64,000 nucleotides of DNA from Microbacterium natoriense. GTDB lineage: Bacteria > Actinomycetota > Actinomycetes > Actinomycetales > Microbacteriaceae. The notes beneath the pieces are model-generated. The model did no database searches and was not told the origin of the DNA. It was given only the letters and a program-made list of their open reading frames with translations. Numbering within the stretch: position 1 is the first letter of the stretch; each line of letters opens with the position of its first letter. Below are positions 51,805-56,286 of the stretch, one piece after another. The stretch lies in the NCBI RefSeq assembly GCF_030816295.1, contig NZ_JAUSXV010000001.1, positions 2,356,001-2,420,000 of the forward strand. The letters are read 5' to 3'. The position numbers were made by a program, and so were the translations under genes.

Positions 51805-52371
51805 CTACGCGAACAGCAGCGTGCTGCAGGGTCCGAGTACGACGAGCCAGCCCGCCGCTGCCACGATCAGGATGCCGACGCCGAATCCGCGGGTTCTGGG
51901 AGAGAAGAGCAGCCCGACGCCGACGAGCACGGGCAGCCCGAAGATCACGAAGTATGCTGCGGGGCCGGCCTGACTCAGCACCGACATCGTGCCCAGGAAG
52001 AGGAAGAACGCGACGACGTAGGACAGGCATCCGATCCCGCTCCCGATGCCGATCTTGGCGCCGTTGCCGAGGCCTCTCTTCTGCCCGTACGGCGGGCCGG
52101 GTGGCATGCCGTACGGCACCTGAGGGACTTGTCCGTAGAACTGCGGTTGACCGGAGTGCAGCGGCTGACCGGAGTAGGGAGGCTGACCGGAGTACGGCAG
52201 TTGGGCCGGGTACGGCGGCTGGGCCGGGTACGGCGGAGCGGCTGCCGGAGCCGGCTGCACGGGTGGAACACCGGTCGACGGTGGCACGGCGGGCTGCGGC
52301 GGCACGACCGGTTCGGGCGGCACCACGGCATCCTGTTCTTCGGGACTGCCGTCAGGCGGGTTGATGCTCAT
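51805..52371 (-). CDS. proline-rich membrane protein with hexapeptide repeats
   Basis: A 188-aa protein, last gene of the four-gene minus-strand operon. Residues 1-100 are Pro/Gln/Tyr-rich, including five hexapeptides of the type PPYPAQ/PPYSGQ encoded by 18-bp tandem repeats. The second half has about three TM helices (GIGCLSYVVAFFLFLGTMSV, YFVIFGLPVLVGVGLLF, GFGVGILIVAAAGWLVVL). The Pro-rich tail is probably cytoplasmic and disordered. It overlaps the Lgt-like gene by 20 nt. No known function. Confidence 0.82.
   Translation of the reverse strand: MSINPPDGSPEEQDAVVPPEPVVPPQPAVPPSTGVPPVQPAPAAAPPYPAQPPYPAQLPYSGQPPYSGQPLHSGQPQFYGQVPQVPYGMPPGPPYGQKRGLGNGAKIGIGSGIGCLSYVVAFFLFLGTMSVLSQAGPAAYFVIFGLPVLVGVGLLFSPRTRGFGVGILIVAAAGWLVVLGPCSTLLFA
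52148..52237. repeat. 18-bp coding tandem repeat, five copies
   Basis: Five degenerate 18-nt units, three starting TGACCGGAGT and two starting TGGGCCGGGT, encoding the hexapeptide repeats of the proline-rich protein on the minus strand. Confidence 0.9.
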
Positions 52372-53158
52372 TCTGTGTCCTCCGGTCGGCGGGGATGAAC
52401 GCGCCCTTCCGCCACAACCATACGAGGCGGATGGCGAGCAGCGGGAGAGTCGCGAGCAGGAACAGCTGCGGGCGCGTGAAGACGAGCCAGGCGACGTCGT
52501 TGCCGCGCACGAACTCGACGAGGAAGCGGAAGACCGCATACGCAGCGATGTAGAGGGTGAGCGTCTCTCCGCTGCGGAGTCCGAGATGCCGCAGCCAGAA
52601 CCACAGCACGATGAACGCCGCGGCGTGGAAGACGATCTCGTACACGAAGCTCGGATGCAGGCCGACACCCGCCGGTGCACCCAGCCGGGTCGCCTGAGCG
52701 GGCGTCAGGACGATGCCCCAGTCGCCACCCGTGGGCGTGCCCGGGTCCTCGGTGAACAGGCATCCGAATCGGCCGATGGCCATGGCGAGAGCCACAGCGG
52801 GCGCGAAGAGATCGCCGCTGCGATCCCGGTATCCGACGATCCGCTTGGTGACGTGCACGCCCGCCCACGCGCCGACCAGAGCCGACAGGATCGAGGCGTT
52901 GCCCGACACCAGCTGCTCGCCCAGACTGAGGTTCTGCGACGGATCCAGATGCTGCGCCCAGGTGCCCAGTCGCGAGAAGATCGCCGCTCCGATGAGAGCG
53001 CCCAGCACGAGGTACGGGATCCGCGGATCGTTCGCGCCGCGTCGACGCGCTTCGACCCAGAACACGAGACCGCCCGCGAGCAGCCCGATTCCGACGAAGA
53101 ACCCGTGGGTCTCGATCGGCGGGCCGAATCCGAACAGGTCGGTCAGGGTGGGGAACAT
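52352..53158 (-). CDS. divergent prolipoprotein diacylglyceryl transferase-like protein
   Basis: A 268-aa, about seven-TM member of the Lgt family, which normally moves diacylglyceryl from phosphatidylglycerol to lipoprotein cysteines. HGFFVGIG, the GRFG core with R130, GLHPSFVYE and RFLVEFVRGN with R211 and E215 are recognisable. The canonical Asn of GRxGNF is replaced by C133 and the family His of HGGL is not seen, so it is unlikely to be the housekeeping Lgt. It lies 3 nt after a small TM gene and 0.3 kb after a Tes-like radical SAM gene, suggesting a role in a special lipid modification. Confidence 0.85.
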   Translation of the reverse strand: MFPTLTDLFGFGPPIETHGFFVGIGLLAGGLVFWVEARRRGANDPRIPYLVLGALIGAAIFSRLGTWAQHLDPSQNLSLGEQLVSGNASILSALVGAWAGVHVTKRIVGYRDRSGDLFAPAVALAMAIGRFGCLFTEDPGTPTGGDWGIVLTPAQATRLGAPAGVGLHPSFVYEIVFHAAAFIVLWFWLRHLGLRSGETLTLYIAAYAVFRFLVEFVRGNDVAWLVFTRPQLFLLATLPLLAIRLVWLWRKGAFIPADRRTQNEHQPA

Positions 53159-53161
53159 CGG

Positions 53162-53470
53162 CTATCCCAGCATCCGCATCCAGAGCATCACCCAGAACGG
53201 GATCGCCGCCGCCGAGAGCACAGCGAGCACGATGAGGTAGGCGAGCACGTTGCGCGTGTCGCCGAGTTTGCAGCGCGAGCGCAGGAGGCCAGCTCGCCGG
53301 GCCTGTGCGTACGCGACGATCGCGATACCGGAGAAGCCCAGCAGCGCGACCGGACCGAGGACGCATGTGATCAGTGCGACGGTGGCGTTGACGCACAGCC
53401 GCAGCGGGTCGCGCGCGTTCGGGGGATCACCGACGCTCGGATCGCGCTGGTTCAACGGCCACGTGGTCAT
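53162..53470 (-). CDS. small two-TM membrane protein in the radical SAM operon
   Basis: A 102-aa protein with TM1 at about residues 27-55 (ATVALITCVLGPVALLGFSG), a cytoplasmic basic loop AQARRAGLLRSRCKLGD, and TM2 at about 72-98. The layout (TM, Ala/Arg/Gly loop with Cys and GD, TM) recalls dispanin/DUF4190-like proteins, but I do not assign it. Its ATG overlaps the radical SAM stop (ATGA) and it ends 3 nt before the Lgt-like gene. Confidence 0.75.
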   Translation of the reverse strand: MTTWPLNQRDPSVGDPPNARDPLRLCVNATVALITCVLGPVALLGFSGIAIVAYAQARRAGLLRSRCKLGDTRNVLAYLIVLAVLSAAAIPFWVMLWMRMLG

Positions 53471-55068
53471 GATGTCGCCGCTGAACCGACGAGGGGCAGT
53501 GAGGTGCGGCCCGTGGCGGTCGATAGCTTCTGATCGGACAGGGGCTTCCACGCCTGCACGGCGCAGAACGGAGCGCACTGATGCTCGTCGGTCTCGCCGT
53601 TGACGGTGGCGACGTGCACACAGCACTGCAGCAGACGTTCCTCGATCATGGTGTTGATGTCCATGAACGGCTTGACGGTGATGCGCTTCACCCGTTCGCC
53701 GAGGAAACGACGCAGCCGCTTGTGCTGTCCGGGGAGGGCCGCCGTGGCGAGCTTTGTGAGTGTGCCGATGCCGAGATCGCACCCGGTGCAGATGTCCTTC
53801 CACAGCGACCCGATCGACGGGTGCGACAGCGACGACTGCTCGCTCAGCAGGTCGAGCAGCGACTGCTTCACGCTGTCCTTGAGGGCTTGGTTGACGTTGC
53901 TGTCCGCGATCCGGTTCGCGATGAGGTCGGGGTTCAGGTCGAGGAACTGCTTGAGCTGCTCGTGGCCGACCAGCGCCGTGAGGGACCGCCAGCTGTCGGA
54001 GTCGTCGCGGAGCAGATAGCCGACCGAGCAGCAGTGCGGGTGGCTGCAGGGGAGCGCCGTGAGGTCCTGCCAGGTGACTTCGCCGTCGGTCTGCGGCCCC
54101 AGGCGCGCGAGGACGCCGGTGTGGGTCAGCCGATCCGTCACGTCGATTCCGCTCGAGCGCCCTGACCCGAAGACGGGCTGGATGGTGACGCCTCCGACAT
54201 AGGGTGTCACCATCGCGCGACGGACGACGGTGCCGATCTCATGGTCGTTGACGCCGAGGGCGGCGGTCATCGTCAGGGTCGTGAAGATGCCGGCACCTGA
54301 CAGCCTCTCGAGGGCGCGCTCCTTGAACCGCCGGATGTCGGCACCGCGGTGGAACTTCGAGGTCTCGGCTTCTTCTCCGTCGTACTGCAGATAGATCTCG
54401 ACGCGTTCGCGGTGCCGCGTGAGTACGGCGAGGAACTCATCGTCGTTGGCGATCCGCAACCCGTTCGAGTTGATCAGGATCCTCACGATCGGCCGGGCGA
54501 CCAGGTGCTCGAGCAACTGTTCGAGCCAGGGGTAGAGCGTCGGCTCGCCGCCCGACAGCATCAACACGTCGATGCGGTCGTTCTCCCGCGCGAGCTTGGC
54601 ATCCACCGACGCGAGCACCTGTTCGAGCGGCGCCACGGCGCTCGCGGCCGGACTGGACTCGGCGAAGCACGTGGGACAGCGCAGGTTGCAGTGGTCGGTG
54701 ATGTCGGCGAGCAGGATGCAGGTGTGCTGGGTCTGCATCTCCGGAAGGCCGTCGAGGTACGCCTCCGGAACGGGCGCGAAGTTGCCGACGACGTCGGGAG
54801 TGTGCGCCTTGGTCGGCGCCGTCCACTGCTCCAGATAGCGGAGTATCTCGGCGGACTCGTCGTAGAGCGTCCGCTGCAGACCGTGCTCCCGACATCCGCG
54901 CTCGAGCCAGATCGTCCCGTCGCGGTCGGCCAGCCATCCGGACAGACGCTTCACTTCCGACAGCGGGCGATCGGGATCCTCGGCGTGGCATTCGGGGCAG
55001 AACGCGTTGACGTACCGGTGGATGCGGTAGTCGCGGAGGGGCATTCCGGTCGTCGTCGGCTGAGGCAT
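53467..55068 (-). CDS. radical SAM protein, Tes/MJ0619-like
   Basis: A 533-aa multi-cluster radical SAM enzyme. N-terminal zinc/iron-finger-like Cys C24-x2-C27 and C59 (FCPECHAE, LERGCREHG), the SAM cluster C127-x3-C131-x2-C134 in DITDHCNLRCPTCFAE, GGEP at 173-176, then C341/C346 (CSHPHC), C427/C430, and the C-terminal FMD, CCVHVA (482-483) and C498/C502 (CAPFCAVQ). This order is that of the archaeal MJ0619/tetraether-lipid-synthase group, which acts on pterin precursors or joins lipid chains. TAGCTT ends six nucleotides before the ATG. It leads an operon with an Lgt-like protein. Substrate unknown; lipid is my inference. Confidence 0.85.
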   Translation of the reverse strand: MPQPTTTGMPLRDYRIHRYVNAFCPECHAEDPDRPLSEVKRLSGWLADRDGTIWLERGCREHGLQRTLYDESAEILRYLEQWTAPTKAHTPDVVGNFAPVPEAYLDGLPEMQTQHTCILLADITDHCNLRCPTCFAESSPAASAVAPLEQVLASVDAKLARENDRIDVLMLSGGEPTLYPWLEQLLEHLVARPIVRILINSNGLRIANDDEFLAVLTRHRERVEIYLQYDGEEAETSKFHRGADIRRFKERALERLSGAGIFTTLTMTAALGVNDHEIGTVVRRAMVTPYVGGVTIQPVFGSGRSSGIDVTDRLTHTGVLARLGPQTDGEVTWQDLTALPCSHPHCCSVGYLLRDDSDSWRSLTALVGHEQLKQFLDLNPDLIANRIADSNVNQALKDSVKQSLLDLLSEQSSLSHPSIGSLWKDICTGCDLGIGTLTKLATAALPGQHKRLRRFLGERVKRITVKPFMDINTMIEERLLQCCVHVATVNGETDEHQCAPFCAVQAWKPLSDQKLSTATGRTSLPLVGSAATS

Positions 55069-55111
55069 GGTCTGAAGCTAGCAGTCGTCGGCGCGCATCA
55101 TCCGACGACGC

Positions 55112-55903: not shown

Positions 55904-56270
55904 GGGGCTGATCGGTTTCGACAGCGCCTGTGAATCCACGAGAAGCGGGCCGAGGATGCAGGGTTATCTCGTGAACGCTCCCTGCAAAACAATAAGTGCC
56001 GAAACCAAGCGCACTGACTTCGCCCTCGCTGCCTAAGCGAGCCCGATAGTCCGTCAGGCCGTATGTGATTCCGATACGGATCCTGGCGTCATTTAGGAAT
56101 CTTGCTGTGTGACGGCGTCTGGACGTCACGCGGGACTCTTCCCAGGCTGGGCTTGTCGACTTAGGTGTCTGTGACAAAGGTCGGAGCCGAGCAGAACGTC
56201 TGCACAGACTGCGCCCGGAGAAGGCGTGGAGACTCAGCGTTGGACGGGGGTTCGATTCCCCCCAGCTCCA
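55904..56270 (+). ncRNA. ssrA: transfer-messenger RNA
   Basis: A 367-nt tmRNA that rescues stalled ribosomes. The 5' end GGGGCTG pairs with CAGCTCC at 56263-56269, and the T-arm GGGGGTTCGATTCCCCCC is upstream of it. The tag frame ends SAETKRTDFALAA and stops at TAA 56034-56036; the resume codon is not certain (GCC before GAA is plausible). CCA is not encoded: the sequence continues A then CAA. A promoter -10 may be TAATTA at 55861-55866. Confidence 0.93.
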
Positions 56271-56286
56271 CAAACGATTGAGCCGA

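What the first reader, a model, noticed from the sequence alone, without database searches (positions are those of the whole stretch)
51805..55068. Four-gene operon of Tes-like radical SAM, two-TM protein, Lgt-like protein and Pro-rich membrane protein
Seen: all four genes on the minus strand overlap or are within 3 nt (53467/53470 overlap, 3-nt gap, 20-nt overlap), with one leaderless-type promoter at 55075-55080. Known: MJ0619/Tes radical SAM proteins with this Cys order act on hydrophobic or pterin substrates, including joining lipid chains; Lgt moves diacylglyceryl groups. Inference: an actinobacterial membrane-lipid or lipoprotein-lipid modification system.
Basis: partly seen in the sequence, partly recalled or inferred. 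Interest (0 to 1): 0.78.

Follow-up and report, generated by a model that had tools for sequence, protein, structure and literature searches.

The report
Tes-like radical SAM and Lgt module
Certain actinobacteria, such as some Microbacterium and Nocardioides, carry side by side a relative of the archaeal enzyme that welds lipid tails and an altered relative of the enzyme that attaches lipid to proteins, which points to an undescribed lipid modification that can be tested.

Summary
The four-gene minus-strand operon is real, as described, and is a conserved unit. Its leaderless promoter recurs 6-7 nt before a start codon in 38 of 41 relatives with rSAM first. In three genome samples a close radical SAM gene (rSAM) and the Lgt-like gene (Lgt2) occur in exactly the same genomes: 21 of 149, 21 of 296 and 9 of 296. 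Gene order changes (rSAM first in 41 loci, Lgt2 first in 36) but adjacency holds. Two small membrane genes belong to the unit; of 90 loci only two, cut inside the rSAM gene, lack both.

Best reading: a two-enzyme glycerolipid modification, Lgt2 at the head end and rSAM at the tail. The chemistry is inferred. My ten paper searches listed no description of the pairing.

The parts
53467..55068 (-). Tes-like radical SAM protein, 533 aa, first gene of the operon
54667..54690 (-). CX3CX2C (C127, C131, C134) of the radical SAM cluster
   Evidence: invariant in the 34 module sequences and the 6 TrsS-like sequences of the alignment
53162..53470 (-). TM2: small membrane protein, 102 aa, predicted three helices, two invariant Cys (C26 at 53395-53393, C67 at 53272-53270)
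   Evidence: both Cys in 71 of 71 sequences; model; in the same 21 of 149 genus genomes as the rSAM
52352..53158 (-). Lgt2: divergent Lgt paralogue, 268 aa, with R130, R211, E215, R218, Y207, E174, E137 kept and H18, L91, C133 in place of Y26, H103, N146
   Evidence: a canonical Lgt lies elsewhere in the genome
51805..52371 (-). TM4: Pro-rich N-terminus plus about three hydrophobic stretches, ending in a G-x-C motif (LGPC, C182 at 51828-51826)
   Evidence: profile family adjacent to the module in 73 of 80 loci, and in 8 of 10 loci not used to build it
55075..55080 (-). -10 hexamer TAGCTT, 6 nt before the ATG: leaderless promoter
   Evidence: TAnnnT at 6 nt (34) or 7 nt (4) in 38 of 41 loci with rSAM first

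Best explanation
This is a conserved lipid-modifying module of Actinomycetota that has also moved between lineages. Shown: the rSAM and Lgt2 occur as a unit with one or two small membrane proteins, in the window as one operon; the rSAM has the overall Tes architecture, with its radical SAM cluster and its C-terminal cluster cysteines; Lgt2 keeps the residues that hold and activate phosphatidylglycerol but has a different, nearly invariant acceptor side. Inferred: Lgt2 takes the diacylglyceryl group of phosphatidylglycerol at the outer face and passes it to an acceptor other than an ordinary lipobox Cys (or only binds it); the rSAM, held at the inner face by TM2, pulls a hydrogen from a fatty chain of the same lipid and makes a new bond there, most likely C-C or C-S through the C-terminal cluster as in Tes. 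TM2 and TM4 serve as docking partners, and the G-x-C of TM4 is the best candidate acceptor within the operon.
Against: No substrate, product or phenotype is known. The rSAM is far from Tes (22-24% identity), lacks the N-terminal cluster, and has Met439 to Lys and Tyr459 to Val in 34 of 34; M439A, Y459F and Y459L variants of Tes stay active (passages), so these two changes are neutral. The better-scoring NCBIfam relative is TrsS, not Tes (187.5 against 151 bits), and TrsS-like genes of the phylum sit beside a methyltransferase (15 of 15), so methyl chemistry is possible. Distant rSAM relatives occur without Lgt2 (11 class genomes), so the fold alone does not imply Lgt2. As I recall, members are mostly ordinary aerobes; the listings (top 30 of 206 and 15 of 1,326 papers) show no report of membrane-spanning lipids in them. 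TM2 is missing in Janibacter-type and mycobacterial-type loci and TM4 in others, so neither small protein is indispensable.
Confidence: 0.42

Rival explanations
1. A membrane protein or peptide is the target. The rSAM modifies the small membrane protein(s), for example at the invariant Cys of TM2, and Lgt2 lipidates the G-x-C Cys of TM4, giving an uncleaved lipid-anchored protein.
For: TM2 C26 and C67 are invariant in 71 of 71 and, if the model holds, lie on one side. Of 82 loci with a TM4 profile match (best match per locus at E<0.01 among 90 loci, adjacency not required), 77 have a Cys in the last 35 residues, 73 of these with G at -2, after a charged loop and a hydrophobic stretch. The Lgt2 acceptor side differs from Lgt.
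Against: Pfam found no peptide-recognition domain in the rSAM, and it matches Tes, not peptide maturases, over its length. TM2 or TM4 is absent in some loci. The residue before the TM4 Cys is usually P, V or A, so most sites are not classical lipoboxes (lipobox rule recalled).
Confidence: 0.22
2. The rSAM acts on a soluble or quinone-like small molecule (methylation or other C-H chemistry), and Lgt2 only anchors or exports it.
For: TrsS-like relatives sit directly beside a methyltransferase in 15 of 15 loci (DVU_1556 type). The family was once classed as class D methylases (passage).
Against: No methyltransferase is shared by the module loci; across taxa only rSAM, Lgt2, TM2 and TM4 are. The structure matches a lipid enzyme.
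Confidence: 0.2
3. Lgt2 is merely a second lipoprotein Lgt, and the neighbourhood is inherited baggage.
For: Pfam LGT matches well above cut-off (91.9 against 24.9 bits). The mBio 2026 paper presumes low Lgt activity for MSMEG_5408 (passage).
Against: Not found without the rSAM in the three samples; two gene orders; Y26, H103 and N146, each needed in E. coli, are replaced by other invariant or nearly invariant residues.
Confidence: 0.08

Closest known systems
Archaeal tetraether synthase Tes / GDGT-MAS (MJ0619; PDB 7TOL, 7TOM)
   Same: Overall fold, rubredoxin-like C-C-C-H site, CX3CX2C, C-terminal cluster cysteines
   Different: No N-terminal [4Fe-4S] cysteines; Met439 to Lys and Tyr459 to Val; 151 bits against the NF045702 cut-off of 450; paired with Lgt2
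TrsS (NF045646) and TrsS-like rSAM with methyltransferase
   Same: Same radical SAM branch; C341, C346, C430 shared
   Different: 187.5 bits against a cut-off of 490; TrsS-like relatives have 26-32% BLAST identity to the window rSAM, keep the N-terminal cluster in 5 of 6 and sit beside a methyltransferase with no Lgt2 or TM2 match in the fetched stretch (15 of 15). Those tested with NCBIfam are themselves below the TrsS cut-off
Lgt, prolipoprotein diacylglyceryl transferase
   Same: Pfam LGT; donor-lipid residues kept
   Different: 55.5 bits against the TIGR00544 cut-off of 118.9; Y26H, H103L, N146C; found only with the rSAM in the sampled genomes
M. smegmatis MSMEG_5408 (second Lgt homologue, function unproven)
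   Same: Y26H and N146C as reported in PMC13251419 (passage); Lgt2 relatives occur in several named Mycolicibacterium
   Different: Its sequence and neighbours were not available to me, so identity with Lgt2 is likely but untested
Bacterial membrane-spanning lipid synthase Mss
   Same: Couples fatty acids in bacteria (passages); that it is a radical SAM enzyme is recalled
   Different: Not compared here; no Mss sequence was at hand

Membership tests
Tes (NF045702) | NCBIfam equivalog cut-off of 450 bits | tested here: not met
   151 bits; L046 155.9, L074 143.8
Tes (NF045702) | Rubredoxin-like C9-C12-C33-H36 site | tested here: met
   C24, C27, C59, H62 invariant; the first two by motif, as the 7TOL stretch used begins at residue 33 of the chain
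Tes (NF045702) | N-terminal [4Fe-4S] ligands C73, C77, C80 | tested here: not met
   V100, D106, P109 in the window; no Cys among the residues shown for the 34 module sequences
Tes (NF045702) | Radical SAM CX3CX2C | tested here: met
   C127, C131, C134 in 34 of 34
Tes (NF045702) | C-terminal cluster cysteines C455, C456, C470 | tested here: met
   C482, C483, C502 in 34 of 34; that these three are the ligands is inferred, the passages read name only Met439
Tes (NF045702) | Met439 and Tyr459, conserved in 1000 archaeal homologues | tested here: not met
   Lys466 and Val486 in 34 of 34; statement of conservation
Tes (NF045702) | Whole-chain fold | tested here: met
Tes (NF045702) | Joins saturated lipid tails | not testable with these tools
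   needs enzyme assay or lipidomics
TrsS (NF045646) | NCBIfam equivalog cut-off of 490 bits | tested here: not met
   187.5 bits
TrsS (NF045646) | Adjacent methyltransferase (an association, seen here in TrsS-like loci) | tested here: not met
   none among the conserved neighbours of the module; present in 15 of 15 TrsS-like loci
Lgt | Pfam PF01790 gathering score | tested here: met
   91.9 against 24.9 bits
Lgt | NCBIfam TIGR00544 equivalog cut-off | tested here: not met
   55.5 against 118.9 bits
Lgt | R143 and R239 | tested here: met
   R130 and R211 in 74 of 74
Lgt | Y26, H103, N146 | tested here: not met
   H18 74 of 74, L91 73 of 74, C133 74 of 74; H103 is Y, W or F in some true Lgts and N146 is C in some distant ones; the Y26 column is ambiguous in my alignment
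Lgt | Lipidates prolipoproteins | not testable with these tools
   needs complementation
Mss | Sequence relationship to Mss | not tested
   no Mss sequence at hand

The most novel reading that the evidence does not exclude
A new kind of lipid-anchoring system: Lgt2 moves a diacylglyceryl group from phosphatidylglycerol to the non-lipobox G-x-C cysteine of TM4 (or to a lipid acceptor), and the Tes-like rSAM joins or functionalises the fatty tails. It would make membrane-spanning or cross-linked lipid anchors in ordinary actinobacteria, some non-tuberculous mycobacteria included.
Probability: 0.17. Interest if true: 0.88.

Novelty: new variant of a known kind. Interest (0 to 1): 0.64.

Why it matters
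The activity of bacterial Tes homologues had not been confirmed according to Zeng 2022 and PMC11868695 (passages), and Lloyd et al. point to bacterial homologues in species not known to make biphytanyl chains (passage). This module gives one bacterial branch of that family a fixed partner that should handle phosphatidylglycerol, and so a testable substrate guess. It also offers a reason for a class of second Lgt genes whose odd residues had been noted without an explanation (passage). It is present in a minority of the window's genus (21 of 149 sampled), so natural with/without comparisons are at hand.

Tried and rejected
Considered and dropped: chance operon; pterin methylase (not corroborated by Lloyd et al.); TrsS member (below cut-off and other partner); selenoprotein (the TGA flagged for G350 is the stop codon that ends its 530-aa ORF, as the coordinates of L091 show). 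Further shared neighbours: none across the 8 reference loci. TM2 could not be assigned to a family (MerT E 0.07, below cut-off), and its model is of modest confidence; no fold search was run for it. Lgt2 and TM4 were not folded (two jobs only). No tree with Mss or a broad set of archaeal Tes was made; in my tree the 90 module sequences are monophyletic with a long stem but support of only 0.757, rooted at 7TOL, and the 15 TrsS-like ones are not monophyletic. Two trees built were not used.

Limits. One search kept the best 80 of 266 loci, so the loci lean to close relatives; the genome samples do not share this bias, but they overlap in a few genomes. The ten loci L090, L091 and L101-L108 were chosen because they hold the rSAM (Lgt2 was already known there), so only TM2 and TM4 are tests in them. 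Only 4 of 12 intended TM4 seeds were picked up, plus the window. The class count leaves out 11 distant rSAM matches without Lgt2 (32-35% identity), and the phylum count leaves out all matches weaker than 1e-100 (168 of 296 genomes match at 1e-3, most by the radical SAM domain only). Statistics treat genomes as independent.

Papers. Searches: (30 of 300 listed; 30 of 206; 25 of 67; 1 of 1; 12 of 42; 1 of 1; 1 of 1; 2 of 2; 15 of 1,326), 87 (20 of 270); open-licence papers only. Passages seen: PMC8941075, PMC9433317, PMC11868695, PMC4728403, PMC13251419, PMC7174638 (78, about MSMEG_5406, not of use), PMC8939145 (89, not of use). No paper was read whole. Tschumi 2012 is not held.
Full report
Observation. 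The window lies in a 4.19 Mb single-contig genome; the closest named relatives of its rSAM are from Microbacterium. The -10 box is not a lucky match: 38 of 41 relatives with the rSAM gene first have TAnnnT 6 nt (34) or 7 nt (4) before an in-frame start codon, out of 98 candidate start codons tried in all, against 0.004 per random position. So the operon most likely starts with a leaderless transcript. Downstream it ends 28 nt from a convergent 503-aa ORF.

Conservation of the unit. A scan with the rSAM protein kept the best 80 of 266 loci. In these, Lgt2 is adjacent in 77; the other three (L031, L051, L081) are cut by a contig end. TM2 is present in 71 of 80 by profile. The fourth gene looked family-specific at first, but a five-sequence profile found it beside the module in 62 of 80 loci and nowhere else in them at E<0.01; after iteration it was beside the module in 73, with two sites elsewhere. 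In ten further loci not used for the profile (L090, L091, L101-L108, chosen because they hold the rSAM) it was found in 8, and TM2 in 6. Of the 90 loci only L031 and L081, cut inside the rSAM gene, lack both small genes. Gene order differs: rSAM-TM2-Lgt2-TM4 in the window's relatives; Lgt2 before rSAM, with TM2 after it where present, in many others (41 against 36).

Co-occurrence. In 149 genomes of the genus, rSAM, Lgt2 and TM2 are each found in 21, the same 21. In 296 class genomes, a close rSAM (>=64% identity) is in 21 and Lgt2 in the same 21; 11 more have a distant rSAM and no Lgt2. In 296 phylum genomes, 9 have a close rSAM (E <= 1e-100; one of them split over two contigs) and the same 9 have Lgt2. 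The samples overlap by a few genomes. One genome of the window's genus (G280) carries a copy of only 66% identity that groups with Janibacter (support 0.927) and has the Lgt2-first order, which suggests that the unit moved horizontally.

The Lgt-like protein. The genome has a canonical Lgt elsewhere. Lgt2 keeps the equivalents of R143, R239, E243, R246, Y235, E202 and E151 in 74 of 74 sequences, and replaces Y26 by His (74 of 74), H103 by Leu (73 of 74) and N146 by Cys (74 of 74) (mapping; the Y26 column is ambiguous in my alignment but agrees with the published wording). Mao et al. 2016 put R143 and R239 at the phosphatidylglycerol site and found H103 and Y26 essential (passages). The mBio 2026 paper lists Y26, H103, R143, N146, G154 and R239 as required, and says that MSMEG_5408 of M. 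[quoted passage not shown] Several named Mycolicibacterium proteins are relatives of Lgt2.

The small proteins. TM2 has D21-P22-L23-R24-L25-C26 and, in the 23 sequences aligned, an A-R-R-x-G-x-x-x-S-x-C-x-L-x-D-T loop; both Cys are invariant in 71 of 71. The model has three helices, which would put both Cys on one side, probably the cytoplasmic side because of the positive loop (inference, modest confidence). TM4 has a Pro-rich start and about three hydrophobic stretches. Among 90 loci 82 have a profile match; 77 of these have a Cys in the last 35 residues, 73 with Gly two places before it. Its position after a positive loop and a hydrophobic stretch suggests the outer face, where Lgt works (inference).

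Mechanism. I commit to a glycerolipid pathway: Lgt2 at the outer face handles the diacylglyceryl end, rSAM at the inner face modifies a fatty tail by Tes-like radical chemistry, and small proteins dock them. Shown: unit, architecture, retained and lost residues. Inferred: substrate, acceptor, bond made. The best rival is modification of the small proteins themselves.

Novelty. Both enzyme families are known; the pairing, this rSAM subfamily and the conserved four-part unit were not described in the papers that my ten searches listed, of which I saw titles and abstract starts, and passages of seven (open-licence papers only). I therefore call it a new variant of a known kind.

Noticed in passing
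L083-L087, L089, L092-L100: TrsS-like rSAM genes sit beside a methyltransferase in 15 of 15 loci. Some also have a SRPBCC lipid-transport-like protein, a MauE-like membrane protein or a CDP-alcohol phosphatidyltransferase nearby: possibly a second lipid module.
   Followed up: partly
G280 (L090): A genome of the window's genus with a Janibacter-like copy of the module (66% rSAM identity, Lgt2-first order): probable horizontal transfer of the unit.
   Followed up: partly
window 55904-56271 (+): tmRNA gene with tag AETKRTDFALAA about 0.8 kb upstream of the operon.
   Followed up: no
G528 C111: Lgt2 of this genome is flagged with one TGA inside the match; not looked into.
   Followed up: no
L018, L039, L044, L046, L050, L052, L059: Two TM4-like genes lie at the module in these loci, as if TM4 were duplicated.
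   Followed up: no
window 52625-52627 (Lgt2 H178): By the alignment H178 stands four residues after E174, where E. coli Lgt has E206, a residue named near the R143 bulge; it is His in 67 of 74 and Gln in 7.
   Followed up: no
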